Shown here: piece by piece, positions 1-12,941 of the stretch | How the letters are laid out: the number at the start of each line of letters is the position of its first letter | Numbering within the stretch: position 1 is the stretch's first letter | NCBI GenBank assembly: GCA_039962225.1 | Contig: JAMPKV010000010.1 | Coordinates: forward strand, 186,001 to 250,000 | Length of the DNA: 64,000 nucleotides | DNA from: Microcoleus sp. AS-A8 | GTDB lineage: Bacteria; Cyanobacteriota; Cyanobacteriia; Cyanobacteriales; Coleofasciculaceae | Direction: 5' to 3' | The notes under the pieces: model-generated | What the model was told of the DNA's origin: nothing | What the model saw: only the letters and a program-made list of their open reading frames with translations | Database searches by the model: none | Made by a program: the position numbers and the translations under genes

Positions 1-389
1 TGCTGTAACACCTCTTGCCGTTGGCAGATATCCTCTCCATATTTGCCTAACATAATCCTTAATAGCATTCGACCTAAACAGAAAGAAGCTCGCCAAGAAA
101 ACACAGCATCCTGTCGATCAATATGACTGTGTTCAAACAGAAAATGTCCGGTCAATCCTATTAACTGAGTTAGCGGTAAGCCCAACAGTAACCAGAAGTT
201 TTGCAACTTCCAAGTCAAAAAGAGCAAGCCGTAAAAAAAGAGGATTCCCACAACATGGAGAGCGACATTAATTGGGTGCTGGTGTTTGAGGACAAAAATA
301 TCCCAGTAGTCTGTAAACGGATGATCCAAAATTTGGTCGTTAATCCGATTTCTCAATTTCTGCTGGAGAGTAGGATTGAGGTTACTCAT
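1..389 (-). CDS. Mpo1-like (DUF962) membrane protein, 3' part beyond window
   Basis: The reading frame starts at ATG 389 on the minus strand and runs without a stop to the window edge (129 codons seen). The N-terminal part has a short soluble stretch, then a motif HQHPINVALH, two hydrophobic segments, and GHFLFEHSHID. This H-x2-P-x-N-x3-H plus GHxxxE arrangement resembles the Mpo1/DUF962 family, whose yeast member is an iron-dependent dioxygenase of 2-hydroxy fatty acids at the ER membrane. It begins 13 bases after the stop of the amidohydrolase gene, so it is very likely the last visible gene of the same minus-strand operon. Family assignment rests on motif memory only. A fatty-acid hydroxylase-like membrane protein is the main alternative. 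Confidence 0.55.
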   Translation of the reverse strand, partial: MSNLNPTLQQKLRNRINDQILDHPFTDYWDIFVLKHQHPINVALHVVGILFFYGLLFLTWKLQNFWLLLGLPLTQLIGLTGHFLFEHSHIDRQDAVFSWRASFCLGRMLLRIMLGKYGEDICQRQEVLQ

Positions 390-402
390 AGGGTATCTTC
401 AG

Positions 403-2112
403 TTAAAGTATGGGAGACAAAACGGTTCCCAGTTGTTCGCGCCCCAGTCGTTCACTGACTTGACCCCGATGAACAACCTGAATCCCATTAATATAAACAG
501 TTTGCACGATATCATCTGACCCACGCTTGACCCTACGAGGTTCCCCATCCAAGACTGGATCTGATATTTCCACTTGTGGGCTGATTGGCTGGTTCAAGGC
601 TTGCGGATTGAGTAAAACCAAATCGGCTTTAGCCCCAATTTTGAGGACTCCGGTATCGAGACGAAACCAGTTAGCAGGTTCTCCGGTGACGCGGTAGATA
701 GCCGTTTCAGGGGGCAGGAAATGAGTAGTAACAGCTTGTTTGAGCAAAGATAAGGCTCCATCATAGTAGCCGAGGTTACGGACATGGGCACCCGCATCCG
801 TAAAACCGGGCAAGATATAGGGGTGCTGCATCAGAGCTAGACGGGGTTCTAAGCGATCGTTGGCTCCCGTAGCAACCCAGCCGATATCCGTGTCGTAGTG
901 ATGCAACGCCTGGATGAAGAAATCCACCGGATCTTGTTGCTTTTGGCGGGCAACTTCGGCAAAGCTCAACCCCTGCCAGTGGGTTTCAGGACAGCGGACA
1001 ATTTCCATCAATTCCAACTGACGATGGAATGACTTACGCCACGGATTGCTCCATTCCTGTCGAAACTGGCGACGGAAACGTTTAGATTGCCACAGTTGTT
1101 GCCGTTCTTGTCGAGATTCACAGCTATTGAGTTGTGCGCCGGTGGAAAATTCTTCAAATAATGGCGTGACTGGGCCATCGGAGTAAATCGTGAAGGGTTC
1201 GGTGAGCGTTTGAAAGCGCACATTGCCCCTGAGAATCCGGTTCCAGATGAACAGGAGAGGGGAAAATATTCGCCATAGTTTGCGATCGTGTACGGCATCT
1301 AAAGCTGAGAGGACAGTTAGGCGCAGGGGTCGTTGCCCAATGCCTGAACCCATGCGGATAATATCAAAAAAGGAAGCCAGTCGCTGTAAATTAGGGGTGA
1401 CTTGAAAAACTAAATCCCGTTGCCGACAAAGATTGGCTAGCATGGCGTATTCACCTAGTTTGGCGTGTTGCGAGGGAATGGTGCAGCCCCGCCATTCTCC
1501 GCTCATCCGATGCCAAGGAAACATATCAATTGAAATGCCAACAAATCCCGCATCTAAAGCATCTGCGGCTATTTGTTGCATGATTTTTCGTTCAGTTCTT
1601 GAGGGCTGAACCGTCAGACTGCGTTCTAATCCCATGACATGGGCGCGTAAGGCACTATGCCCAAACAAAGGGGCAACATTGGGGCCAAGTGGCAAGTGTT
1701 GCAAATGGTTCAAATATTCGGCTGGTGTATGCCAAGAAAGCGACTGTTTCAGCCATTTCTCAATCAGCCGATGGGAAAGCGTCTCCACCCTCTGAAAAAT
1801 ATCTGCCAGCATTTGGGGTTTCCCAACGGCAACAGACAAGCTACAGTTGCCAATGACAACGCTGGTAACGCCATGACGAACGGATTCACTCAGCCCCGGT
1901 GCAATCTCTAACTCTAGATCGTAGTGGGTGTGGATATCGATAAATCCTGGCGTTACCCACAGTCCGGAAGCATCTACTACTTCACGGGCATTGTTAGGTA
2001 ATGAGGGGGCGAGCGCAACAATTCGACCATTTTGAATGCCAATATCCCCACGAACAGGCGCAGAGCCTAAACCATCGAAAATTAACCCGTTTTGAATCAG
2101 CAAATCCAGCAT
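403..2112 (-). CDS. N-acyl-D-amino-acid deacylase-type amidohydrolase
   Basis: A 569-residue protein of the amidohydrolase superfamily, D-aminoacylase/Amidohydro_3 branch. The metal-binding HxH motif is in GFIDIHTHYDLE (His61, His63). The C-terminal GFTDAGAHVRNLGYYDG carries the late conserved Asp, and the last 80 residues form the usual small beta-sandwich (DLVLLNP, VYINGIQV). Family members hydrolyse N-acyl-D-amino acids, hydantoins or dipeptide-like amides with zinc. The length is slightly above the usual 480-550. It starts 15 bases after the glycosyltransferase stop and is followed after 13 bases by the Mpo1-like gene. The operon suggests turnover or editing of an acylated cell-surface or lipid molecule, but the substrate cannot be read from sequence. 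Confidence 0.85.
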   Translation of the reverse strand: MLDLLIQNGLIFDGLGSAPVRGDIGIQNGRIVALAPSLPNNAREVVDASGLWVTPGFIDIHTHYDLELEIAPGLSESVRHGVTSVVIGNCSLSVAVGKPQMLADIFQRVETLSHRLIEKWLKQSLSWHTPAEYLNHLQHLPLGPNVAPLFGHSALRAHVMGLERSLTVQPSRTERKIMQQIAADALDAGFVGISIDMFPWHRMSGEWRGCTIPSQHAKLGEYAMLANLCRQRDLVFQVTPNLQRLASFFDIIRMGSGIGQRPLRLTVLSALDAVHDRKLWRIFSPLLFIWNRILRGNVRFQTLTEPFTIYSDGPVTPLFEEFSTGAQLNSCESRQERQQLWQSKRFRRQFRQEWSNPWRKSFHRQLELMEIVRCPETHWQGLSFAEVARQKQQDPVDFFIQALHHYDTDIGWVATGANDRLEPRLALMQHPYILPGFTDAGAHVRNLGYYDGALSLLKQAVTTHFLPPETAIYRVTGEPANWFRLDTGVLKIGAKADLVLLNPQALNQPISPQVEISDPVLDGEPRRVKRGSDDIVQTVYINGIQVVHRGQVSERLGREQLGTVLSPIL

Positions 2113-2127
2113 GATTCTTTATTTCCC

Positions 2128-3414
2128 TCACACAGTTCGACCGCGATGCTCAGTCTTAATCCAATTCAATTTCTGTGGTTTTATACACAGGCTTAAAGCT
2201 GTCACAATCATCACTGGAATCCAATGCACCATGTAGAGAGAACCCTGGATAGTTGCCCACAGCAAAGACCATCCCCGTAATTTTTGATGTTGGTAAAGTC
2301 CGGCAATAAAACCAACCGTTACAATGAGGCTGAGTAGTGTCTGAAGTGGAAATAAAAGCGGATGATGGTTGTAAAAGATTGTCCAAAGCAAGTCAGGAAT
2401 GAGGGCGAGAGGTAGCAGGAATTGCAATAGAAAAAACAACATTAGATCGAGTTCTTTCGTCAAACCTAATGCAAGAATTTGGGGGAAATAATCCAGGTGA
2501 CGCTGATAGCCACCTTCCGCCCAACGACAGTGTTGATGCCAAAGCGCTCTCCAGGTTGTTACCCCTTCTTCCTGAATGGCTGGAACTGTGACAAACTCAA
2601 TTTCAGTACCTACTAAATAAAGTTTGAAGCACAAATCTAAATCATCAATTGTGTCTTCGCTCCAACCCTTACACTTTTCTAGCATTTCCCGACGCACTAA
2701 CATACCATTGCCCCGAAGCTCAGACATTCCTCCGACAGCAATTCGATGGGTTTGCAGATAAGCATCACAACTCATTTCCATCTGCTGGCAACGAGTTAAG
2801 AAATTGGTATCTGCATTCGAGATCGCTTTTCGCGCCTGCACCGCACCAATTGCCCTCTTCTGAAACAGAGGTACGGTTTGCCGCAGAAAATTGGCAGAAA
2901 GTTGAGCATCGGCATCGCAAATAAGCACAATCTCGCCCTGCGTGAAGGGAAAAACTGCATTGAGTGCCCCGGATTTACCTCCTTTTGATTCCCGTCGATG
3001 AACCTGTAACCCCGAAAATTGAGTTTGTAATTTCCTCAAAATTTGGGGGGTTTCATCAGTACTGCCGTCATCCACAATCCAGATATCCAGATGAGTGCTG
3101 GGATAGTTCAGGCAAAATAGGCTATGAACCACATCGGGCAAGACGGCGCTTTCATTTTTAGCGGGAACCAGAATCGAGACTTTGGGCAAATCGGCATCAC
3201 CCTCTACCCTGGGAGCGATCGCTTTTGCCATGAGCATCCGTAGCGTTTGAATCGTCAGGACTGCCGTTAATCCCACAATGAGCCACTGCGTTTGGGGTTG
3301 CCAGTGGAGCAAACTGACGAAACCCCAGACAAGTAGAACCACGAGGGTGGCTTTGAGGCGGCGATCGCGATGAACACTGACATTGTTACTTAGCGAATAG
3401 GGAGTTCTTCTCAC
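2128..3414 (-). CDS. Family 2 glycosyltransferase, membrane-bound, processive type
   Basis: I start this gene at GTG 3414, which shares its first base with the TAG stop of the upstream gene (TAGTG) and gives 428 residues. The longer open frame to 3519 lies inside the upstream gene and lacks protein-like sequence. Two N-terminal membrane segments precede a GT-A domain with VSILVPAKNE, WIVDDGSTD, DAD (about 167-169), IDDLDL (about 256-261) and QHCRW (about 294-298), the Q-x2-R-W motif of processive synthases such as PgaC, NodC or cellulose synthase. Three to four membrane segments follow. The donor sugar and product are unknown. It is co-transcribed with a deacylase-like enzyme, which suggests envelope glycan or glycolipid chemistry (inference). 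Confidence 0.88.
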   Translation of the reverse strand: MRRTPYSLSNNVSVHRDRRLKATLVVLLVWGFVSLLHWQPQTQWLIVGLTAVLTIQTLRMLMAKAIAPRVEGDADLPKVSILVPAKNESAVLPDVVHSLFCLNYPSTHLDIWIVDDGSTDETPQILRKLQTQFSGLQVHRRESKGGKSGALNAVFPFTQGEIVLICDADAQLSANFLRQTVPLFQKRAIGAVQARKAISNADTNFLTRCQQMEMSCDAYLQTHRIAVGGMSELRGNGMLVRREMLEKCKGWSEDTIDDLDLCFKLYLVGTEIEFVTVPAIQEEGVTTWRALWHQHCRWAEGGYQRHLDYFPQILALGLTKELDLMLFFLLQFLLPLALIPDLLWTIFYNHHPLLFPLQTLLSLIVTVGFIAGLYQHQKLRGWSLLWATIQGSLYMVHWIPVMIVTALSLCIKPQKLNWIKTEHRGRTV

Positions 3415-4061
3415 TAGATTTGCTCTACTTTCTCCATTTCTGGCTGAGCCTTGCGACGCCACAACAGCATCGTGACTGCCCCTAGCAGGATACCGCCCAC
3501 TCCTGCCGCAACCGCCCAAAGACGACCGGCTTGCTGGGCACCCATTAACACGGGATTATCCAGCAGGTTGGAAGAAAAATGCAGTGATTGAATAGTCCAA
3601 TTCCCCTGAAACTTTTGCAGCACGGCTGTCCATCGCATCGCCATCGTGGGTTTATTGCCATCTTTAAAATAAAATGTTGCGTTCGCATCTCCGTAGGAAA
3701 TGGCGGTTTCCGGGGAGAGAAACGTTCTGGGAGTATCCACCTTCGCCTCCATTTTGATGTCTTTAATCGAACTGGAGAACTGTTGATTCCAATACTTCTC
3801 AAACTCAGGCACTTTATGAAAAACTCGGTTATCAACCGTGGTAATCGTGAAGCTTGGATGCAAGTAAGGTTCAATTTTGGAAAAATCGCGAGTGTTAAGC
3901 GCTTGCAGAGCCATTTCCCGCGTGCGGATAATTGCATTAACCTCCTGTTGGTTAACATCAGCCCAAGCACATAGGGGTACATTCCAAATTGCCAGCAGGA
4001 GTAAAGCGACCCCAAGTATTTGACTGCATCGGTATCTGATTGACCGTTTGTGTTTTGTCAT
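3414..4061 (-). CDS. NTF2-like domain protein with signal peptide and C-terminal anchor
   Basis: A 215-residue protein. An N-terminal basic/hydrophobic stretch (about 1-33, ending AWA) looks like a signal peptide. Residues about 37-165 look like an NTF2/SnoaL/DUF4440 fold: helix VNAIIRTREMALQALNTRD, then HPSFTITTVDN and a W-rich last strand (WTAVLQKFQGNWTIQSLHFS). Residues about 180-200 form a membrane helix followed by WRRK and an acidic tail. It is likely anchored in the cytoplasmic membrane with the domain outside. It is the first gene of the four-gene minus operon and overlaps the glycosyltransferase by one base. NTF2-like domains often bind small ligands; catalysis is not indicated. Confidence 0.65.
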   Translation of the reverse strand: MTKHKRSIRYRCSQILGVALLLLAIWNVPLCAWADVNQQEVNAIIRTREMALQALNTRDFSKIEPYLHPSFTITTVDNRVFHKVPEFEKYWNQQFSSSIKDIKMEAKVDTPRTFLSPETAISYGDANATFYFKDGNKPTMAMRWTAVLQKFQGNWTIQSLHFSSNLLDNPVLMGAQQAGRLWAVAAGVGGILLGAVTMLLWRRKAQPEMEKVEQI

Positions 4062-4402
4062 TTATTCCTTGCCTTGCTGCCGATAATCAGGAATTAAATA
4101 ACTTCCAATTATACCAATGAGTTTAATATTTGCTATATACAAATATAGTATTTCCATTTGAGATGTAAACAATAACGAACAACAGAGGCTCAGAGAACAC
4201 AGAGGAGAGAGAATAGAGAATTTCACATCTCAAATACAAACGCTATATTTCCAAGAAATTCTCAAAGCAGATACGATCAAGATAAGCCAACTCCAAGAAA
4301 AAATGTTTTCCTAAGGACAGCCTATAAAGCTGCACATGATTTGACGGCTGATGGTCTAGCGAAATCTAGATTTGAACAATACTATGGACAAAGCAGACAT
4401 CA
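4062..4402. other. Divergent intergenic region upstream of the oxygenase cluster
   Basis: This gene-free stretch separates the minus operon from the plus-strand oxygenase cluster, so promoters for both must lie here. It is AT-rich and contains the inverted-repeat element at 4141-4250. Between the arms is a purine-rich run with CAGAGG-type units. I see no convincing sigma-70 pair and no RNA gene. Confidence 0.6.
4141..4250. repeat. Inverted-repeat (MITE-like) element, about 110 bp
   Basis: Arms at 4141-4166 and 4225-4250 are imperfect inverted repeats of 26 bases. The inner 11 bases (ATTTGAGATGT against ACATCTCAAAT) and outer 7 bases (AAATATA against TATATTT) match exactly, with 8 unmatched bases in the same place in each arm. 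The 58-base centre is purine-rich. It could be a small non-autonomous element or a regulatory hairpin upstream of the oxygenase cluster. Confidence 0.5.
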
Positions 4403-5134
4403 ATGCCTATGCAGGCGCGACTGGTTGAAGTTCAACAATTGCTTGGGAGCGATCGCAACGCCATGTACTCCCTTCTCAATACCCATTTTGATGGAGTCAA
4501 TCCAGAACTATTTGAAACTGACCTAGAGCAGAAAAACTGGGTTATTCTCTTAGAAGATAAGGAAACAAAAACGCTCAAAGGCTTTTCCACCTTATTGGTT
4601 TACGAAACCCAGTTTGAGGGAGAAGTCCTGAGTGTCGTCTATTCTGGAGATACCATTGTAGACCCCAGTGCTTGGTCGAGTTCGCTCTTGCCTCGTGCCT
4701 GGATTGCCTCAATTCATTTTTTACGGGACAAGTATGCCAACGGCAAACTCTACTGGCTGCTCATTTCTTCCGGTTATCGTACCTACCGCTTTTTACCCAT
4801 TTTTTGGAAAGAGTTTTATCCTTGCTATGATACCCCCACGCCTCCCCGCATCCAGGCACTCATGCAATTCCTAGCTCACACCCATTTCGGCAATTGCTAT
4901 GACGAAAGCGCTGGAGTGGTTCGCTTTCCCCATCCCCAGGTTCTTCGAGAGAACTTGTGTGGCATACCTCAAGAACGGCTGAAAGATTCCCATATCCGTT
5001 TCTTTCAAACTAAAAATCCCGGCTATGAACAGGGAGATGAATTAGTCTGTTTGACAGAGATTAAGGAAGAAAATCTGACTAAAGCAGGTCGGCGCATGTG
5101 GTTTGCAGAAGCTTCCTTAGGAGTTGCGTCATGA
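4403..5134 (+). CDS. GNAT-like acyltransferase, first gene of oxygenase cluster
   Basis: A 243-residue soluble protein. The N-terminal half reads like a GNAT fold: a first helix (AMYSLLNTHFDGV), a strand with VILLEDKETKTLKGFSTLLV, then VVYSGDTIVDPSAW and a helix LLPRAWIASIHFLRD. The C-terminal half has no recognisable motif, and the usual acetyl-CoA signature R-x2-G-x-G/A is not obvious, so the acyl donor and even catalysis are uncertain. An in-frame TGA at 4373 limits the start; ATG 4403 or 4409 are both possible. Its stop overlaps the start of the Rieske gene in an ATGA at 5131. Position suggests it acylates or tailors a pathway intermediate (inference). Confidence 0.6.
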   Translation: MPMQARLVEVQQLLGSDRNAMYSLLNTHFDGVNPELFETDLEQKNWVILLEDKETKTLKGFSTLLVYETQFEGEVLSVVYSGDTIVDPSAWSSSLLPRAWIASIHFLRDKYANGKLYWLLISSGYRTYRFLPIFWKEFYPCYDTPTPPRIQALMQFLAHTHFGNCYDESAGVVRFPHPQVLRENLCGIPQERLKDSHIRFFQTKNPGYEQGDELVCLTEIKEENLTKAGRRMWFAEASLGVAS

Positions 5135-6174
5135 GAATGAATGGGCATTCACAGGCGGTTCGTTCAACTCATAAAACCCAGATTTTTAACCAGGAAGACC
5201 GCTTTATTGAAGGGTGGTATTGGGCAATTCCCTCTAGTAAACTCAAGATTGGTCAGGTTAAACCCGTAACCTTGCTAGGACGAGAATTAGCGATTTACCG
5301 GGGAACGGATAGGAAGGTAGTGGCGCTAGATGCTTACTGTCCGCACATGGGCGCGCATCTGGCAGAAGGAAAGGTTGAGGGGTGCCGTATCCGCTGTTTT
5401 TTTCACAATTGGCAGTTTGACGAGCAAGGAAAGTGCGTCGATACGCCATCTGTGGGTAAACCCGTCCCAGTTACCGTGCAAACTTGGCCCACGGCGGAAC
5501 AGTACGGTATGGTTTGGGTATGGACGGGGGAAACGCCACAACAACCCGTACCTTATGTACCAGAACTCCAAGATGAAGAGTGCGATAAAGCTTTTGGTTC
5601 TCGCTTTGTGAAGAACTGTCATCCTAATGTGTTGCTGATTAATGCAATTGATGCTCATCACTTCAATACTGTTCATAACCTGCCTCTACAAATTGTGTTT
5701 GAGAAGCGGGAATTAAATCAGAACGCAATTACTTTTAGCAATAAAACTAGGGGTGGGGAAGAGTCATTTCTAATCAAACTCCTTCGCCCGTTATACAAAA
5801 ATGAAGTCACTTACAGTATGTGCTATTGGTACGGCAGCACAGGTACCGTCACCTTAGGGCCAGACTTCTTGCACTTTCATATTATGTTTGCACTGCGGCT
5901 GATTGAGGGAGGAAAGACTGAAGGCAAAACTATTATGATTACGCGCAAGCGTCCTGGCTTGGGCGGGTGGATTTTTAACCGAATTGTACTCTGGCTAACT
6001 CAGCAGGTAGGGAATTACTTTGCTAAGGGTGATACTCAAGTTTTTCAGACAATTAAGTTTGATTTGAAGACTCCTACTCAAGCAGATCGGTCGATTTTGC
6101 AGTTCCTTGAACACGTAGAGGGGCAAAAACCCTTGCTATGGGGTACGTGGGAGAGTGCTAAGGAGAAAGCATGA
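5131..6174 (+). CDS. Rieske non-heme iron oxygenase (PAO-like), cluster gene 2
   Basis: The chosen start is ATG 5131, in an ATGA overlap with the preceding stop and 10 bases after TAGGAG; this gives 347 residues. The Rieske [2Fe-2S] ligands are Cys70-P-His72 and Cys89-F-F-His92. The mononuclear iron site is Asp174-x2-His177-x4-His182 (NAIDAHHFNTVH). This is the two-domain alpha-subunit architecture of pheophorbide a oxygenase and related cyanobacterial enzymes, which hydroxylate or desaturate with O2 and two electrons. No reductase is encoded nearby; the ferredoxin at 8426 is a plausible donor. The C-terminus lacks the membrane segment of plant PAO. The substrate is unknown. Confidence 0.88.
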   Translation: MRMNGHSQAVRSTHKTQIFNQEDRFIEGWYWAIPSSKLKIGQVKPVTLLGRELAIYRGTDRKVVALDAYCPHMGAHLAEGKVEGCRIRCFFHNWQFDEQGKCVDTPSVGKPVPVTVQTWPTAEQYGMVWVWTGETPQQPVPYVPELQDEECDKAFGSRFVKNCHPNVLLINAIDAHHFNTVHNLPLQIVFEKRELNQNAITFSNKTRGGEESFLIKLLRPLYKNEVTYSMCYWYGSTGTVTLGPDFLHFHIMFALRLIEGGKTEGKTIMITRKRPGLGGWIFNRIVLWLTQQVGNYFAKGDTQVFQTIKFDLKTPTQADRSILQFLEHVEGQKPLLWGTWESAKEKA

Positions 6175-7163
6175 ACACTGAGAACTACAAAGTACAGTCA
6201 AAACCAATCGATCAGACAGTAGGGGAAAATGTAGATTTAAACACCTTCTTGCAACCCTTAGCATTTGGGACGGCAGGGTTCGATTTACCGCACGTCGGAG
6301 AAGCGAATAAGTTGGGATGTGTGCTATCTGCGGCACTGGGGCAACGGTTAGGCAATGCCTCATCTTCAGAACGTAGCAACACTCTCTATTGGAATGCGGA
6401 CTACTTCGGATTGCACAAGGTGAAGGTCTTTCAGGACTCAAGCTTAGAGGAACAGGCCGCAATTTTGCAAATTGCTAATCGAGGATTACTGGAAGAGGCA
6501 TATTTTGTCGAAAAAGCTGGCATGGGCTATATGGCAAAAATGGTGTTGCTGGCAGAAACGACAGAGGAACGGATGCTTTATAGTTTGTTTGCTGCGAATG
6601 AAGCAACCCATCTGAGTCAGATTAGTGCTTTCCTGCCCGATCGCCCTGTTGGTACGAACGATACATTTTTGCGCTTCCTAGCAGATTTAGTCGAGAGTCA
6701 GGATAAAACGGTGCTGCTGTTTACGATCCAGCTAGTACTGGAGGGGTGGGGGTTGAGTCATTATCGGAGTCTAGCTAAAGGTTGTTGCGATCGCACCCTC
6801 AGCCGACTCCTCACCGGGTTCCTGCAAGACGAAGCACGGCATCACGGGACTGGACTAATTCTATTTGAGCAAACATCGGTTTCCTCGCAAAGTCGAGCCG
6901 TCATTGTCGAGACACTCTTGTGCTTTTTGCAGATGATTCGCGTAGGCCCTCAGCGAGTGGTGGAAGCAATTGCTCAAGTCAAAGGGGATTTGGCGCGATC
7001 GCAAAAAATCCGCATCTTGGAAGAACTCGGCACCGAAATCCACAGTGGCACTCGACTGCATCTTCTGCGTTCTTTGATGCGAGGTGAAGCTGCTGAAGCG
7101 ATCGTGCAAGCACTAGAAGCAAGAGGAGCTTTTGAACCTCTTCCGGCAAGTCAGTGTGTATAG
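6171..7163 (+). CDS. Ferritin-like diiron carboxylate protein, cluster gene 3
   Basis: A 330-residue helical protein starting in an ATGA overlap with the Rieske gene and preceded by AAGGAG. Four helices supply a two-fold diiron pattern: Glu109/Glu114 (LLEEAYFVEK), Glu144-x2-His147 (NEATH), Glu191 (LVLEGWGLSHY) and Glu221-x2-His224 (QDEARHH). This 2x(E...ExxH) layout is that of ferritin-like diiron oxygenases and oxidases. The last 90 residues are helical without a motif. It is longer than ferritin or rubrerythrin and is not a ribonucleotide reductase. I infer an O2-using tailoring enzyme in the same pathway as the two flanking oxygenases; the reaction is unknown. Confidence 0.7.
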   Translation: MNTENYKVQSKPIDQTVGENVDLNTFLQPLAFGTAGFDLPHVGEANKLGCVLSAALGQRLGNASSSERSNTLYWNADYFGLHKVKVFQDSSLEEQAAILQIANRGLLEEAYFVEKAGMGYMAKMVLLAETTEERMLYSLFAANEATHLSQISAFLPDRPVGTNDTFLRFLADLVESQDKTVLLFTIQLVLEGWGLSHYRSLAKGCCDRTLSRLLTGFLQDEARHHGTGLILFEQTSVSSQSRAVIVETLLCFLQMIRVGPQRVVEAIAQVKGDLARSQKIRILEELGTEIHSGTRLHLLRSLMRGEAAEAIVQALEARGAFEPLPASQCV

Positions 7164-7257
7164 CTAAGGCTAGGAATAAACAACAAAAATTAGCTTGGAT
7201 TTGCCAATCCCCATAAAGACGGGAAAGGTATTAATTAACTCATAAAACTTAAATCAA

Positions 7258-8433
7258 ATGCTTAAGAATACTATATTAGAAAATCAGAAGATTTATAAAA
7301 AAATCCACCTCAACTATACGCGCAATAAGCAGCAAGATCATACGACTTTAATGGATGAAGCCTCCCAAGCTTTTTGTTATGAAGATTGCAAAGACGAATA
7401 TTGGAATCCAGAAGAATTTTCCCTGCTTTACGGAACTCCTGTTTGGGAACAGGCAAGTCCCAGTCAGAGAATCATTTTAAATCAACTCTATTGGGTAGCT
7501 TACTATTCCCAAATCGTTTCTGCTGAAATTGCTACTATCTTTTTTAACCAAACCAGTGCCGCCGGACTCTACGCGCAGGAAGATTTTCGCTTAGTTTGCG
7601 ACATGCTGGATTTAGAATCCATACAAGAACGCGCTCACATTCACGCCTTTAGAACAATTTCTAACCAAGTCGAAACAGCTTTATTTGGGCGGCACATTTT
7701 TACTTATGCCATGCGTGGCCCTTTTACCGAAACGATGATTTATGCGGATACCAATGCTCTGAAAACTGGGTGGAAAAAACTTCAACTCCATTGCTTCGGA
7801 CTCTTATCTTCAGATAATGCATTTCTCGCCTGCCAATACTTTACCGTGCGGGGCATACGAACGCTAAATGGCAAGTTAGTTCAGCATAAGCTGAGTAATT
7901 ATTATCAAAAACATCCCAACCCAGAAGATGCTCCCATTCCCGCCAAAATTTCCTATTACCACTTTATGGATGAGAGCTTTCATTTCAATAGTTCTACAAT
8001 TCTTTCCCATGAAGTTGTAAAATGCCTCAAGCCTCCTACAGCCTTTGAACAATTCGTGGCTAATTTGGGACTGCGGGGTTGTCAGAGAGATCATTACCAT
8101 TTTTCAGCAGCAATTAATGGTATTTTTTGGTACGATCCTGCACTTTACTCAGCGATTTATCAAGTACTGCGATCGCCCATCTTTAATATGGACGATCGCG
8201 AAGCCAAAGAAATGATGCAATTGTGCTTCACACAAGAGTCGGAAGGGTTACAGCGAAGTTGCCAAACCCATCAAGAAGCGATCGCATCCTACAAGGTTTA
8301 TCTAGAAAAAGTAGATTACGCCTGGAAGAGTAATCGAGAAATGTCCTTAATGAACTCCAACTCAATACCCCAATATCTCGCCACTCAAAAGAAAGCATTG
8401 ACGATGTTTGAGAGAGGCAAAACGTATGAGTGA
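7258..8433 (+). CDS. AurF-like diiron oxygenase, cluster gene 4
   Basis: A 391-residue protein with ligands Glu90, Glu124-x2-His127 (ERAH) and His235-x3-Glu239-x2-His242 (HFMDESFH). The H-x3-E-x2-H on the last ligand helix is the distinctive arrangement of AurF (p-aminobenzoate N-oxygenase), where it reads His223/Glu227/His230, and the spacing between the first two motifs is also very close (34 against 35). The fourth carboxylate (AurF Glu196) is not obvious; the matching helix reads FLACQYFTVRG. AurF-type enzymes oxidise amines to nitro or hydroxylamine groups, but relatives also act on carbon. A 94-base gap separates it from the upstream gene; no strong ribosome site is seen. Family call by motif only. 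Confidence 0.65.
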   Translation: MLKNTILENQKIYKKIHLNYTRNKQQDHTTLMDEASQAFCYEDCKDEYWNPEEFSLLYGTPVWEQASPSQRIILNQLYWVAYYSQIVSAEIATIFFNQTSAAGLYAQEDFRLVCDMLDLESIQERAHIHAFRTISNQVETALFGRHIFTYAMRGPFTETMIYADTNALKTGWKKLQLHCFGLLSSDNAFLACQYFTVRGIRTLNGKLVQHKLSNYYQKHPNPEDAPIPAKISYYHFMDESFHFNSSTILSHEVVKCLKPPTAFEQFVANLGLRGCQRDHYHFSAAINGIFWYDPALYSAIYQVLRSPIFNMDDREAKEMMQLCFTQESEGLQRSCQTHQEAIASYKVYLEKVDYAWKSNREMSLMNSNSIPQYLATQKKALTMFERGKTYE

Positions 8434-8719
8434 GCAACGATGCATTGTCTCTTTTCCAGCCACTAGCTATTCACCCATTACCCTAAAAGCGCATCAAAAA
8501 TTGTCAGAACATCTTACAGTCCAAAATTCTCCAGTACTGTTTGGTTGTCGCACTGGCATTTGCGGAACTTGCCTCGTTTTAGTGAACGGCGAAACCTCAC
8601 CACCAAGTGCAGAGGAACGAGAAGTACTAGAAGTGCTAGCACCAGAACATACTAATGCCAGACTTGCCTGCCAGCTAGAACTTACAAGCAATTTAGAAAT
8701 TACACACTTAAAAGAATGA
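8426..8719 (+). CDS. 2Fe-2S ferredoxin, cluster gene 5
   Basis: A 97-residue plant-type [2Fe-2S] ferredoxin with ligands Cys41-x4-Cys46-x2-Cys49 and Cys82. ATG 8426 is preferred over the upstream in-frame ATG 8408 because it follows GAGAGG and leaves an 8-base overlap with the preceding stop. Compared with photosynthetic PetF it has a shorter, less acidic C-terminus and a diverged N-terminal strand, so it is probably a dedicated carrier. Its place between the AurF-like gene and the second Rieske gene suggests it delivers electrons to the cluster's oxygenases, taking them from the cell's ferredoxin-NADP reductase or photosystem I (inference). Confidence 0.88.
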   Translation: MSEQRCIVSFPATSYSPITLKAHQKLSEHLTVQNSPVLFGCRTGICGTCLVLVNGETSPPSAEEREVLEVLAPEHTNARLACQLELTSNLEITHLKE

Positions 8720-8870
8720 ACAAACCAGTATAAACCCCAAAATATTATTGCCATTTCCATCTATAAATCCCCTCAAAAACTCTGCGCTATTCTGCGCTTT
8801 ACTCCGCGCTCCTCTGCCTTAAAAAAATACATTATCCCCATACAAACCAATTCGATATAACCCATCCAAA
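8720..8870. repeat. Short spacer with CTCTGCG-type tandem repeat
   Basis: This 151-base gap inside the cluster holds three imperfect copies of a CT-rich unit (CTCTGCGCTATT, TCTGCGCTTTA, CTCCGCGCTCCTCTGCC) at about 8781-8818. The complementary unit (CAGAGG) recurs inside the element at 4141-4250. This is a short tandemly repeated repetitive sequence of the kind common in filamentous cyanobacteria. Confidence 0.55.
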
Positions 8871-9893
8871 ATGAAATTCGAGGATTTCTGGTACATCGTG
8901 GCACTCAGCGAAAAACTCCGATCAAATAAAGTTTTACAACGCACAGTATTAGGGGAATGGTTAGCAGTATTTCGAGGCGAAGATGGAAAAGTGGTGGCAT
9001 TGCGCGATCGCTGTATGCATCGTAACAGTCGCCTCTCTTGTGGTACAGTCCGCCAAGGGAAAATTCAGTGTCCCTATCATGGATGGGTATACGACCATAC
9101 TGGAAAAGTTTTGGCAGTTCCTTCAGAAGGAAAAGATTTCAAGCCTCTCTCTACTCGTCGAGCCAAATGTTACCCGACTAGGGAACAAGACGGATATATT
9201 TACGTACAACTCAGCGATAACAAGAGCGAAGAATTTGAACCCTTTGCCATGCCGCACTATCAGGAACCTGGATGGGAAACGGTGCGAGTAATTAACCGCT
9301 TTCGCAACAATGTAACGAACTGTGCCGAGAATTTCATCGACATTCCGCACACCGCTTTTGTCCATCCCGGTGTATTTCGTACTTCCCGTCAGCAACCGAT
9401 CAAAATGAGCGTAGAACGTCGTAATGGTTCGACGTTTGTGGAGTATCACAACGAAACAACTAATTTGGGATGGTACTCTCGCTTTCTGAATGGGAAAGGA
9501 TATGAAATTCGGCATACAGATAGTTTTCACATGCCAAATATTACCAGTGTGGAGTACGATATGGGATTGCATCGACGACTTTTCATCACCAGTCAATCCA
9601 TTCCTGAAACGGAGAACTCGACGCTGGTTTATACAGATGTGACCTATAACTATGGCATCTGGAATAAAATTGCTCGTCCCTTTGTGCGCTGGACGGCACA
9701 GCATATTATTCGTCAGGATGTCAAAATTTTAGATGTTCAAGGGGAAGCGATCGCAAAATATGGTTCCCACTTTACCAACACTCCCGCCGATACCATCCAC
9801 GTTTTTGTTGAGTCGATTCGTAACAAAATCGCCGCAGGAGAAGACCCTAGAAAACTTCCCGAACAATCGGTTGAAATCACATTTTGGGTATAA
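8871..9893 (+). CDS. Second Rieske non-heme iron oxygenase, cluster gene 6
   Basis: A 340-residue Rieske oxygenase only distantly like the first one. The cluster ligands are Cys48-M-His50 and Cys67-P-Y-His70; the iron site is Asp157-x2-His160-x4-His165 in ENFIDIPHTAFVH. Tight Rieske spacing and the FYWYxVA-type start (DFWYIVALSEKL) place it with single-component alpha subunits such as vanillate demethylase or cyanobacterial homologues. Two dissimilar Rieske enzymes in one transcription unit imply two separate oxidation steps or substrates. The downstream hydroxylase gene overlaps its 3' end. The start has no clear ribosome site, but the first residues match the family. Confidence 0.87.
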   Translation: MKFEDFWYIVALSEKLRSNKVLQRTVLGEWLAVFRGEDGKVVALRDRCMHRNSRLSCGTVRQGKIQCPYHGWVYDHTGKVLAVPSEGKDFKPLSTRRAKCYPTREQDGYIYVQLSDNKSEEFEPFAMPHYQEPGWETVRVINRFRNNVTNCAENFIDIPHTAFVHPGVFRTSRQQPIKMSVERRNGSTFVEYHNETTNLGWYSRFLNGKGYEIRHTDSFHMPNITSVEYDMGLHRRLFITSQSIPETENSTLVYTDVTYNYGIWNKIARPFVRWTAQHIIRQDVKILDVQGEAIAKYGSHFTNTPADTIHVFVESIRNKIAAGEDPRKLPEQSVEITFWV

Positions 9894-10636
9894 AAAAAGT
9901 GGAAAATATATTAATTTTTGCGGCCTTTACAGTATTAATAGGACTCACCATTGCTCATAAACCCAGTTGGGCAAAGTTACGCACAAAAAGCCGTGAAGAC
10001 TGGATTTTAGATGGGTTGGGTTTGCTGGTTCAAGGATTGCTCATTCCGATTCTTCAGATTGCGGTGGTTTATCAGCTATATCGGTACTTCCTACCCTTGC
10101 CGCAGGGATGCTTACATTTGCCTCAGGTTGCAACTTTCCTACTCAGTTTCATCTTGGTAGATTACCTCTACTACTGGAACCATCGCTGTTTACATAGTCG
10201 CTGGTTCTGGCATTTGCATCAGGTTCATCATACTGTCACGGATATGGATGTCCTGGGAACTTCCCGCAATTCCCTGTGGACAAGTTTTCTGATTATCTAC
10301 CTATGGATACATGCGCTGTTTCTCTACCTGTTGCATGACTCCACTGGATATCTTATAGGAGTTAGTATCACCGCAGCGTTAGATCTATGGCGGCACAGTC
10401 AATTAGCGATCGCACCTCAAAGTGGGCTTTTTCGCTTACTATCACCCTGGCTGATTTTGCCCCAAGATCATGCTTGGCATCATGCCAGCGATTCGGGTTG
10501 CAGGAATTACGGGGCAAATTTGAAAATCTGGGACAAATTACATGGAACTTACTATAACTGTGATGCCCCCCCTGCTTCTCTGGGTATTCAGACTACATTG
10601 ACCCTGACTCAAAAGCTACTCTATCCCCTAACATGA
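9884..10636 (+). CDS. Sterol desaturase/fatty acid hydroxylase family membrane oxygenase, cluster gene 7
   Basis: A 250-residue integral membrane protein with the histidine boxes His100-x3-His104, His112-x2-His115-His116 and His196-x2-His199-His200 of the FA_hydroxylase/sterol desaturase superfamily. Four to five hydrophobic segments are visible. The open frame uses TTG 9884 (10-base overlap with the Rieske stop) or GTG 9899. Family members hydroxylate or desaturate lipid, sterol, carotenoid or wax substrates at a diiron site in the membrane. This is the strongest hint that the cluster's substrate or product is lipophilic. It ends in an ATGA overlap with the acyltransferase gene. Confidence 0.88.
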   Translation: MGIKKVENILIFAAFTVLIGLTIAHKPSWAKLRTKSREDWILDGLGLLVQGLLIPILQIAVVYQLYRYFLPLPQGCLHLPQVATFLLSFILVDYLYYWNHRCLHSRWFWHLHQVHHTVTDMDVLGTSRNSLWTSFLIIYLWIHALFLYLLHDSTGYLIGVSITAALDLWRHSQLAIAPQSGLFRLLSPWLILPQDHAWHHASDSGCRNYGANLKIWDKLHGTYYNCDAPPASLGIQTTLTLTQKLLYPLT

Positions 10637-11310
10637 CGCTCCTGAGTAAAATCCTTGCCTACTTTTCTACCCTAATCATCCTGCTAACCATAGCCTCTTT
10701 CCTCTATCTGTGCGCTCATCCAGGGTTGGTCGGCGTGGGACTATTGCTGTTTTTCTTATACGGGTTTCCTGTGCTGATTTATCGCCTCCATCAGCGCTTC
10801 TATCCCGTCGAGGAAGGCATTAGCTATCTGTGCGGTAACGAGTATAGCCCTTGGTGGGGTAGCCATCAAATTCAGGTAATTTATATCGCCGTTCCGGCAT
10901 TGGAAGCCGTGCTACGACTCATTCCCGGTGCTTTTTCCTTGTGGTTGCGCCTCTGGGGGGCAAAAGTGGGTCAAAACGTATACTGGACACCTGGACTGGA
11001 AATTGCGGATCGGGGATTGTTGGAAATTGGCGATCGCGCTGTCTTTGGTCATCACATTGGCATCTACCCCCACATCATCAAACCCCGCAAACAAGACTTA
11101 ATGTTGTACGTCAAAAAAGTCAAGATTGGCAGTGATGTTTTCCTGGGGGCAGGTTCTCATTTTGGCCCCGGCGTTGTCGTCCCAGATGGCACTTATCTAC
11201 CTGTCGCCACTAACCTTTATCCTAATCAAGAAGCGAAATCATGCGCTGGTTCATCAAACTCTTTGAGCAACTTCTCGCCCCAAGCGCTGAACGCTTCCGA
11301 GACGCTTTAA
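10633..11310 (+). CDS. Hexapeptide-repeat (left-handed beta-helix) acyltransferase, membrane-anchored, cluster gene 8
   Basis: A 225-residue protein. Two N-terminal membrane helices (about 8-50) precede VEEGISYLCGNEYSPWWG and a left-handed beta-helix of hexapeptide units from about 105 (GAKVGQNVYWTPG, LEIGDRAVFGHHIGIYPH, VKIGSDVFLGAGSHFGPGV). The His pair in FGHHIG is a plausible catalytic site. Such proteins O- or N-acetylate or acylate small substrates. The last 22 residues (serine/asparagine-rich) overlap the GH3 gene by 70 bases and look like read-through rather than conserved fold. It starts in an ATGA overlap with the hydroxylase gene, so translational coupling is likely. Confidence 0.78.
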   Translation: MTLLSKILAYFSTLIILLTIASFLYLCAHPGLVGVGLLLFFLYGFPVLIYRLHQRFYPVEEGISYLCGNEYSPWWGSHQIQVIYIAVPALEAVLRLIPGAFSLWLRLWGAKVGQNVYWTPGLEIADRGLLEIGDRAVFGHHIGIYPHIIKPRKQDLMLYVKKVKIGSDVFLGAGSHFGPGVVVPDGTYLPVATNLYPNQEAKSCAGSSNSLSNFSPQALNASETL

Positions 11311-12941
11311 AACATCCCGAAAAGGCTCAAAAACGAGTGCAGCAGGAAATTTGCGATCGCCTTATCAAGAGCGAGTACGGCAAGTACCTGGGCATTCGCT
11401 CTCTCCAAGCTTGGCAACAAGTTCCGATTGTTGACTACGACGACCTCAAACCCTGGATTGATGGAGTAGGGGGACACAGCAGCAGGGGGACAGAGGGTAA
11501 ATCAATCACTCATCCATTACAGGCGCAACTCACTAGCGAACCCATCCTTTTTTACGAAAAAACCTCTGGAAGTCGCAGTGCCGCCAAATTGATACCCTAC
11601 ACCAAATCCCTGCGGCGTTCCTTTAATCACATGTTTTGTGTTTGGGCGCATGACCTAATCCGCAATGGCCCTGCTTTTTCAACAGGTAAAATTTACTTCT
11701 GCATTTCTCCCCAGTTCCAATACTGTTCGGATAAGACTGACCTAACCCCCCTAGCCCTCCTCACTAAAGCTCCGGTTCCCTACGAGGGAAGGGGGGAGTT
11801 AGACGCCCCTCTCCTACAAGGAGAGGGGTTGGGGGAGAGGTTAACCGAGAATGCCCCTAATCTCGATCATTCATCCTTACAAGATGACTCCGAATACCTC
11901 GATCGCTGGTTGAGGTGGCTGCTTCATCCCTTTCTAATTTCTCCTGGCTTAGTGCATCAGTTGAGAACGGCAGAGGAGTTTAAGCGGCAGTTATGTCTTG
12001 CCTTACTGCAAGCAGAAAAGCTAGAAACCATTTCAATTTGGAGTCCTACTTTTCTCAAGATTCATCTCAATTACATCCAAACGCACCGCACAGAGTTGCG
12101 GCAGTCGTTGAAAATATCCGCAGAACGCGATCGCCTACTGTGCGAACCGGAAATTCCTTGGACGAAACTGTGGCCTGAGTTGAAGCTAATTTCCTGCTGG
12201 GATAGCGCCTGCGCCGCCGATCCAGCTCAAGTTCTACATGATCTATTTCCGGGTGTCATGGTGCAGGGTAAAGGACTTTTAGCCACAGAAGCGCCGATGA
12301 CGATTCCCCTAATTGCCGCACAAGGATGCGTTCCCGTACTGGATGAAGTGTTCTTTGAGTTTGAGGATGAATCGGGGGAAATTTATCTGCTGCAAGACCT
12401 GCAAATTGGACAGGAATACACCATCATTCTTTCGCAAAAGGGAGGGCTTTACCGCTATCGAATTGGCGATCGCGTGCGTGTTACCCATTACTACCTCAAT
12501 ACCCCATGCCTGGAATTTTTAGGGCGCGATTCCTCCATCAGTGATTTAGTAGGTGAAAAGCTACACGAAGAATTTGTCAGCGAGGCACTCAAAGAATTAG
12601 CGTTAGAAGGCACATCGTTTCAGTGCTTAGTGCCTACGATAATTCCGGAAGCGCATTATATTCTCTTACTGGATAAGGTGAATACACCTACTAATGCGAT
12701 TGCTGAGCAATTAGAACAATTCCTACATCAGTCTCCCCACTATCGCCATGCCCGACTGCTCGGTCAACTCTCTTCAGTTCAGGTTTTAGTCTCTCAGCAA
12801 ATACCTGAAATATTGACCAGCCAACGAATAGCGTCTGGGAAAAAGTGGGGAGATATTAAACACTCGCTTTTGTGCGAGCGACCGATTGAAGAAGACTTAC
12901 TGGTCAGGTTGAAGCAAGCCGATTCTTTGCAACAATCTTAA
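11241..12941 (+). CDS. GH3 family acyl-acid amido synthetase-like enzyme, cluster gene 9
   Basis: A 566-residue member of the GH3 auxin-responsive promoter family, ATP-dependent enzymes that adenylate a carboxylate and join it to an amino acid. Visible motifs are the phosphate-binding YEKTSGSRSAAK (105-116), GLLATEAPM (345-353) and YRYRIGD (404-410), then LEFLGRDSSISDLVGEKL. Bacterial substrates are mostly unknown. Two stretches do not look like GH3 protein: residues about 76-87 and about 167-205, encoded by low-complexity DNA and by a dispersed palindromic repeat; both keep the frame. It closes the cluster; no terminator hairpin is obvious after it. Amide-bond formation to a cluster-made acid is a reasonable inference. 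Confidence 0.85.
   Translation: MRWFIKLFEQLLAPSAERFRDALKHPEKAQKRVQQEICDRLIKSEYGKYLGIRSLQAWQQVPIVDYDDLKPWIDGVGGHSSRGTEGKSITHPLQAQLTSEPILFYEKTSGSRSAAKLIPYTKSLRRSFNHMFCVWAHDLIRNGPAFSTGKIYFCISPQFQYCSDKTDLTPLALLTKAPVPYEGRGELDAPLLQGEGLGERLTENAPNLDHSSLQDDSEYLDRWLRWLLHPFLISPGLVHQLRTAEEFKRQLCLALLQAEKLETISIWSPTFLKIHLNYIQTHRTELRQSLKISAERDRLLCEPEIPWTKLWPELKLISCWDSACAADPAQVLHDLFPGVMVQGKGLLATEAPMTIPLIAAQGCVPVLDEVFFEFEDESGEIYLLQDLQIGQEYTIILSQKGGLYRYRIGDRVRVTHYYLNTPCLEFLGRDSSISDLVGEKLHEEFVSEALKELALEGTSFQCLVPTIIPEAHYILLLDKVNTPTNAIAEQLEQFLHQSPHYRHARLLGQLSSVQVLVSQQIPEILTSQRIASGKKWGDIKHSLLCERPIEEDLLVRLKQADSLQQS
11738..11855 (+). repeat. Dispersed palindromic repeat inserted in frame in the GH3 gene
   Basis: This segment contains, at 11756-11776, a 21-base stretch that is the exact reverse complement of 24330-24350 and 24400-24420. 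It also contains a short hairpin (TCTCCTACAAGGAGA, around 11812-11828) that recurs at about 19866-19882. It codes for a G/L/P-rich insertion between otherwise GH3-like sequence and has no stop codon. Confidence 0.8.

What the first reader, a model, noticed from the sequence alone, without database searches (positions are those of the whole stretch)
4403..12941. Nine-gene oxygenase-rich cluster with GNAT, ferredoxin, acyltransferase and GH3, no PKS/NRPS
Seen: nine plus-strand genes with several translational overlaps. They encode two dissimilar Rieske oxygenases, a ferritin-like diiron protein, an AurF-like diiron protein, a fatty-acid/sterol hydroxylase, a dedicated 2Fe-2S ferredoxin, and GNAT, hexapeptide acyltransferase and GH3 adenylating enzymes. 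Known: each family catalyses O2-dependent oxidation, electron transfer or acyl/amide bond formation. Inference: an undescribed pathway making an oxidised, amidated or acylated lipophilic small molecule. I know of no characterised cluster of this composition.
Basis: partly seen in the sequence, partly recalled or inferred. Interest (0 to 1): 0.88.

Follow-up and report, generated by a model that had tools for sequence, protein, structure and literature searches.

The report
Orphan cyanobacterial halogenase-like lipid cluster
A conserved set of about fourteen cyanobacterial genes, built round an enzyme related to known fatty-acid chlorinating enzymes, probably makes an oxidised and perhaps chlorinated fatty-acid amide; the cluster type was noticed in 2021, but its product is still unknown.

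Summary
The nine genes are real, and their order is conserved at about 45-80% protein identity in some 20 genomes from 11 families of the phylum, including non-photosynthetic relatives. It has both signature motifs and 8 of 9 essential residues; the ninth (Glu) is Gln in all 22 sequences of its clade. (2) The unit is larger. A third Rieske oxygenase, an Mpo1-like 2-hydroxy-fatty-acid dioxygenase, a D-aminoacylase-like amidohydrolase, a GT2 glycosyltransferase and a SnoaL-like protein lie divergently upstream; four of these, profiled across 50 genomes, occur only with the cluster (e.g. Rieske 3: 19/21 versus 0/29). (3) The architecture is not undescribed: it is the orphan 'Rieske-containing' CylC class of Eusebio et al. 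2021, with no known product. Newly seen here: a GH3 acyl-adenylating enzyme in all 21 genomes, although that paper found no substrate-activating enzyme; and a GNAT-GH3-hexapeptide core in photosystem-less relatives, in one case beside radical-SAM proteins instead of oxygenases. Most likely it makes an oxidised, possibly chlorinated fatty-acyl amide lipid. Halogenation and the product are inferred, not shown.

The parts
4403..5134 (+). Gene A: GNAT-fold N-acyltransferase, family without a Pfam model
   Evidence: AF2 model, Foldseek to AAC(2'), NatD, GNA1 and N-myristoyltransferase, E down to 2e-6; homologs in 32/386 genomes
5098..6174 (+). Gene B: Rieske oxygenase 1 (KshA/SxtT-like)
   Evidence: PF00355 84 bits; PDB KshA 6e-23, SxtDIOX/SxtT; invariant C81xH83, C100xxH103, D185, H188, H193
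6171..7163 (+). Gene C: ferritin-like putative diiron protein
   Evidence: Ferritin_2 22.4 bits, cut-off 24.7; E114, E144xxH147, E191, H197, E221xxH224 invariant in 26 sequences; AF2 model too poor to use
7258..8433 (+). Gene D: CylC/NocO-type dimetal-carboxylate halogenase homolog (Rieske clade)
   Evidence: PF11583 23 bits; E120xxQ123E124xxH127, H235xxD238E239xxH242, E90 present, NocO E252 position is Q209; clade support 100/100
8408..8719 (+). Gene E: plant-type [2Fe-2S] ferredoxin, likely electron donor
   Evidence: Fer2 33 bits; C47, C52, C55, C88 invariant in 20 sequences
8871..9893 (+). Gene F: Rieske oxygenase 2 (VanA/DdmC-like)
   Evidence: PF00355 86 bits, VanA_C 44.7 bits; PDB DdmC 8e-22
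9884..10636 (+). Gene G: membrane fatty-acid hydroxylase / sterol desaturase family
   Evidence: PF04116 86 bits; weak similarity to OlsE, 68 bits against cut-off 475
10633..11310 (+). Gene H: hexapeptide-repeat acyltransferase with hydrophobic N-terminal segment
   Evidence: Hexapep 24.4 bits, slightly below cut-off; WcaF-like; H147 invariant in 20 sequences
11241..12941 (+). Gene I: GH3 acyl-adenylating amido synthetase, with an in-frame dispersed-repeat insertion near 11740-11850
   Evidence: GH3_N/M/C all above cut-off; PDB GH3.12 and JAR1; ortholog in 21/21 cluster genomes versus 0/29
3414..4061 (-). Accessory: SnoaL/NTF2-like protein
   Evidence: SnoaL_3 32.5 bits; present in 10/21 cluster genomes versus 0/29 others
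2128..3519 (-). Accessory: membrane GT2 glycosyltransferase
   Evidence: Glyco_tranf_2_3 and Glyco_transf_21; linked at 65-74% identity in several relatives' loci, in different positions; not profiled across the 50 genomes
403..2112 (-). Accessory: D-aminoacylase / N-acyl-D-amino-acid deacylase-like amidohydrolase
   Evidence: Amidohydro_3 65 bits; PDB D-aminoacylase 1e-21 and N-acyl-D-Glu deacylase 9e-24; 12/21 versus 0/29
1..389 (-). Accessory: Mpo1-like 2-hydroxy-fatty-acid dioxygenase (its far end lies about 31 bases left of the window; the Rieske 3 gene follows at G000:C10:184881-185912, outside the window)
   Evidence: PF06127 36.4 bits, cut-off 24; 12/21 versus 0/29; Rieske 3: 19/21 versus 0/29

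Best explanation
This is a biosynthetic locus of the orphan 'Rieske-containing CylC' class. It most likely converts a long-chain fatty acid from central metabolism, without a carrier protein, into an oxidised and probably chlorinated fatty-acyl amide (N-acyl-amino-acid-like) lipid. Proposed steps, all inferred from family chemistry: the CylC-like diiron enzyme D, fed electrons by ferredoxin E, abstracts a hydrogen from an unactivated chain carbon and rebounds chloride; the Rieske enzymes B, F and Rieske 3, the membrane hydroxylase G and the ferritin-like C add hydroxyl or keto groups; the Mpo1-like enzyme may shorten a 2-hydroxy acid by one carbon; GH3 (I) adenylates the carboxylate and couples it to an amine or amino acid; GNAT (A) N-acylates; hexapeptide enzyme H O-acylates; GT2 and the amidohydrolase glycosylate or de-acylate the product. 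Shown here: gene content, conserved order, conserved catalytic residues, and strict co-occurrence with the cluster for the GH3, Rieske 3, Mpo1-like, amidohydrolase and SnoaL-like genes.
For: Conserved order A-B-C-D-(Rieske 3)-E-F-G-H-I in about 20 genomes. Partners co-occur even when unlinked: GH3 21/21 v 0/29, Rieske 3 19/21 v 0/29, amidohydrolase and Mpo1-like in the same 12/21 v 0/29, SnoaL 10/21 v 0/29. D has the halogenase motifs ExxQExxH and HxxDExxH and is about 30-40% identical to paralogs in FAAL-ACP-PKS-like settings, one of them confirmed by Pfam. NocO chlorinates a fatty-acyl chain using ferredoxin/reductase (PMC12101540). The Mpo1-like, FA_hydroxylase and GH3 families and, in a core-only relative, a fatty-acid desaturase next to GNAT-GH3 all point to fatty acyl substrates. 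A GH3 relative, OlsH, makes N-acyl ornithine (PMC12493201).
Against: D has Gln209 in place of NocO Glu252, and Ala at that residue kills NocO; I found no assay of any member of this clade. No amine substrate can be read from sequence. GH3 and the membrane hydroxylase fall far below the OlsH and OlsE cut-offs. Co-occurrence was tested against 29 control genomes not matched by phylogeny, though 15 of them share the main family, f6.
Confidence: 0.55

Rival explanations
1. Same lipid pathway, but D is a diiron oxygenase or desaturase, not a halogenase, so the product is oxidised but not chlorinated.
For: The residue at NocO E252 (AurF E196, CylC E283) is Gln in all 22 Rieske-clade proteins and Glu in all 9 comparison paralogs; E252A abolishes NocO activity. 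D seems to lack an insertion near residues 150-185 of the carrier-dependent paralogs, judged from its split matches to them. The branch between the two sets is long.
Against: Gln is a conservative change at a position predicted to lie outside the metal shell, leaves the proposed chloride site open, and was noted in a small subset of CylC homologs. The halogenase-specific Gln of QExxH is kept.
Confidence: 0.3
2. The substrate is an isoprenoid (sterol-like, hopanoid or carotenoid) rather than a fatty acid.
For: Rieske B and F are distantly similar to SdmA, and B to KshA; G is in the sterol desaturase superfamily.
Against: Scores are far below the SdmA cut-off (92 and 79 against 600); no terpene cyclase or synthase was seen among the annotated neighbours; Mpo1-like, GH3, CylC-like and the desaturase variant point to fatty acids.
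Confidence: 0.1
3. A catabolic island that degrades hydroxy fatty acids, N-acyl amino acids or aromatic xenobiotics.
For: Rieske oxygenases, a D-aminoacylase-like hydrolase and an Mpo1-like alpha-oxidation enzyme are typical of degradation.
Against: Three acyl- or amide-forming enzymes (GNAT, hexapeptide, GH3); the halogenase family; no beta-oxidation or ring-cleavage genes among those annotated; the core persists without oxygenases in photosystem-less relatives.
Confidence: 0.07

Closest known systems
'Rieske-containing' CylC biosynthetic gene clusters (Eusebio et al. 2021, PMC8406957)
   Same: Single CylC homolog, 2-4 Rieske proteins, sterol-desaturase family protein, acyltransferases, no carrier protein, no known product, with homologs of this CylC group also in Melainabacteria
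   Different: That paper reports no substrate-activating enzyme; here a GH3 gene accompanies every cluster. The Mpo1-like, amidohydrolase, GT2 and SnoaL genes and the E-to-Q clade signature are added here; the supplement of that paper was not readable
CylC / NocO dimetal-carboxylate halogenases (PMC12101540)
   Same: ExxQExxH and HxxDExxH motifs, first-helix Glu; NocO works with ferredoxin, and a ferredoxin gene follows D here
   Different: Gln for E252; no FAAL/ACP/PKS neighbours; shorter protein
OlsH/OlsI ornithine-lipid pathway (PMC12493201) and OlsE
   Same: GH3 enzyme forming a fatty acyl amide; membrane hydroxylase of the FA_hydroxylase superfamily
   Different: No OlsI recognised; scores far below the family cut-offs; many more oxygenases
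PriA-containing CylC clusters of Synechocystis (PMC8406957)
   Same: A-B-C-D block as in G076 and G093 here, with Rieske 3 and GH3 elsewhere in the genome
   Different: Other genes dispersed; the identity of G076/G093 as Synechocystis is a guess

Membership tests
Rieske-containing CylC gene clusters | single CylC homolog in the Rieske/PriA clade | tested here: met
   One D gene in the genome; D and its Rieske-context orthologs form one branch, 100/100
Rieske-containing CylC gene clusters | 2-4 Rieske-domain proteins | tested here: met
   Two in the window and a third at C10:184881-185912
Rieske-containing CylC gene clusters | sterol desaturase family protein | tested here: met
   PF04116, 86 bits
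Rieske-containing CylC gene clusters | no carrier protein or FAAL nearby | tested here: met
   No PP-binding or AMP-binding domain in the nine genes or the upstream genes; downstream genes judged from ORFs only. A GH3 adenylating enzyme is present
Dimetal-carboxylate halogenase (CylC/NocO) | ExxQExxH and HxxDExxH motifs | tested here: met
   E120/Q123/E124/H127 and H235/D238/E239/H242 invariant in 31 of 31 aligned (rows were chosen by the QExxH...HxxDExxH pattern, and every locus tried had it); motifs
Dimetal-carboxylate halogenase (CylC/NocO) | Glu at NocO 252 (published as the one non-absolute position of nine) | tested here: not met
   Q209 in D and all 22 clade members; published as Gln in a small subset
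Dimetal-carboxylate halogenase (CylC/NocO) | diiron cofactor and chlorination activity | not testable with these tools
   needs protein
AurF N-oxygenase | PF11583 above cut-off and Asp before the second-helix Glu | tested here: not met
   23.0 bits against 29.6; Gln123 instead of Asp
OlsH (GH3 lyso-ornithine lipid synthetase) | NCBIfam cut-off 620 bits | tested here: not met
   26.4 bits
OlsE (ornithine lipid hydroxylase) | NCBIfam cut-off 475 bits | tested here: not met
   68.2 bits
SdmA 4beta-methylsterol monooxygenase | NCBIfam cut-off 600 bits | tested here: not met
   92 and 78.6 bits
GH3 acyl-acid amido synthetase superfamily | three GH3 domains above cut-off | tested here: met
   85.5, 62.6 and 27.1 bits against 23.6
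GNAT superfamily | GNAT fold | tested here: met
   Foldseek best E 1.9e-6, 267 hits at E<=0.001; the 50 listed are overwhelmingly GNAT enzymes
Mpo1-like family | PF06127 above cut-off | tested here: met
   36.4 bits against 24; activity not testable

The most novel reading that the evidence does not exclude
An ancient, phylum-wide halogenated aminolipid of Cyanobacteria. A carrier-free subclade of diiron halogenases, marked by the Glu-to-Gln switch and partnered by GH3 activation, chlorinates free or amide-linked fatty chains, while photosystem-less relatives build a related lipid from the same GNAT-GH3-hexapeptide core with radical-SAM enzymes instead of oxygenases.
Probability: 0.25. Interest if true: 0.8.

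Novelty: new member of a known kind. Interest (0 to 1): 0.52.

Why it matters
This was the most abundant class of CylC-type clusters in the 2021 survey (36 of 95), yet no product is known. A carrier-free C-H halogenase would be a practical biocatalyst. The extended parts list (GH3 activation, Mpo1-like, amidohydrolase, third Rieske) and the Glu-to-Gln signature give concrete genes to delete and assay, and the broad distribution suggests a general lipid rather than a strain-specific compound.

Tried and rejected
Twin divergent promoters sharing a 14-mer (window 4142-4249) first looked like co-regulation of the two arms. The pair recurs elsewhere in the genome as a 74% identical element with the same inverted ends, so it is more likely a small repeat element, and it is absent from relatives. 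The AlphaFold model of ferritin-like C was too poor (pLDDT 50) to search. PDB sequence searches with D and with the A profile found nothing. Filing genes as OlsH, OlsE or SdmA was rejected by cut-offs. Plasmids hold only distant D homologs, 31-33%. No paper naming a product was found.
Full report
OBSERVATION. The window lies in a 7.75 Mb genome that has photosystem I genes, taken here as a cyanobacterium. All nine ORFs exist as stated, on one strand, with overlapping joints. Family scans support Rieske (two genes), fatty-acid hydroxylase, [2Fe-2S] ferredoxin and GH3; the ferritin-like, AurF-like and hexapeptide matches fall just under Pfam's cut-offs, and the GNAT has no family match. An AlphaFold model of the GNAT (pLDDT 78.5) matches GNAT-fold enzymes in the PDB. 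Catalytic residues of the main families are invariant across 12-34 orthologs.

CONSERVATION. A search of 386 genomes of the phylum found GNAT homologs in 32 and D homologs in 33, 21 of them close orthologs including the window's own. Reading up to 20 kb around the GNAT hits, plus named contigs (Hassallia, Plectonema, Spirirestis, Okeania, LEGE 07170 and others), shows the order A-B-C-D-E-F-G-H-I, complete or nearly so, in about 20 genomes. A third Rieske gene (N8) sits between D and E or just upstream of A in most relatives; in the window's genome it lies 1.1 kb to 0.1 kb left of the window. G004, G018 and G038 carry the cluster, rearranged or split, but have no psaA/psaB match (G038 is only 73% complete).

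EXTENDED UNIT. Upstream, on the minus strand, are a SnoaL-like protein, a GT2 glycosyltransferase, a D-aminoacylase-like amidohydrolase, an Mpo1-like protein and Rieske 3. Over 50 genomes (21 with D ortholog, 29 without): GH3 21/21 v 0/29, Rieske 3 19/21 v 0/29, amidohydrolase 12/21 v 0/29 (one copy degraded), Mpo1-like the same 12/21 v 0/29, SnoaL 10/21 v 0/29 (Fisher p from 1e-14 to 3e-5, not corrected for phylogeny). Orthologs were called by high identity (at least about 42%); one control, G062, has a shorter GH3 match at 40% that belongs to the distant GH3 group of the core-only relatives. In G197 and G093 the amidohydrolase and Mpo1-like genes are adjacent to each other but unlinked to the main cluster, so the association is not mere neighbourhood. 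GT2 was seen as a neighbour only, not profiled.

THE CENTRAL ENZYME. D matches AurF weakly. Its paralogs at about 30-40% identity lie in other genomes beside large and small genes laid out like PKS clusters; for one of them (L112) Pfam confirms an AMP-binding ligase, carrier protein, D paralog and type I PKS, the arrangement reported for CylC-type halogenases (PMC8406957). The published halogenase motifs ExxQExxH and HxxDExxH (PMC12101540, PMC12871659) are both present and invariant in all 31 aligned proteins, as is E90. The ninth residue essential in NocO, E252, aligns with Q209 of D and is Gln in all 22 Rieske-context proteins and Glu in the 9 others (the 22 rows include the window's protein twice, so 21 genomes); the two sets are separated by one fully supported branch. 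The NocO paper reports Gln at this position in a small subset of homologs and proposes that the shift of this residue opens a chloride site. So D is a CylC-family protein, and halogenation is likely but unproven.

PRIOR KNOWLEDGE. Eusebio et al. 2021 (PMC8406957) already define 'Rieske-containing' CylC clusters (36 of 95) with 2-4 Rieske proteins and a sterol desaturase, no known product and, they state, no substrate activation or carrier protein. New here, as far as the main text of that paper shows: GH3, an acyl-adenylating amido synthetase family, accompanies every cluster examined; the accessory genes; and the clade-wide E-to-Q switch tied to this architecture.

CORE AND ANAEROBIC-LOOKING VARIANT. 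In several relatives without psaA/psaB match (G013, G050, G053, G077, G100, G297) only GNAT and a distant GH3, with the hexapeptide gene in two, were found. In G297 they sit with two radical-SAM proteins and an amidohydrolase; in G062, a member of the window's own family, GNAT sits with a fatty-acid desaturase and GH3. This suggests that acyl/amide assembly is the core and the oxygenases are decoration. That reading is an inference from two loci scanned.

MECHANISM. I commit to a fatty-acyl amide lipid, oxidised and probably chlorinated; the order of steps is a guess from family chemistry. OlsH (PMC12493201) shows that bacterial GH3 enzymes can make N-acyl amino acids, but gene I fails the OlsH cut-off by far (26 against 620 bits), so it may work like OlsH but is not filed as OlsH.

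VERDICT. Real, conserved, and a new member of a known orphan class, with several added parts and a testable residue signature.

Noticed in passing
window 11740-11850: The GH3 gene carries an in-frame insertion of a dispersed palindromic repeat (about 45-50 codons; 32 other partial copies in the genome), which largely accounts for 566 aa against about 508 in orthologs.
   Followed up: partly
window 4142-4249: A 108-bp element with 28-bp inverted ends lies between the two divergent arms; a 74% identical copy is at G000:C1:621175-621288, so it looks like a MITE-like repeat whose ends mimic promoters.
   Followed up: yes
L070 5433-12491: In a photosystem-less relative the GNAT-GH3-hexapeptide core is flanked by two radical-SAM proteins and an Amidohydro_2 protein instead of oxygenases.
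   Followed up: partly
L107, L108, L115: G360, G076 and G093 hold a CylC-like protein (33-36% identical to D) outside this cluster; in G360 it is followed by a ferredoxin-like gene. The G360 copy keeps the Glu at the E252 position.
   Followed up: partly
L048 (G125) near 5018-5740: The amidohydrolase copy in G125 appears degraded: only the first 244 residues match, with stops.
   Followed up: no
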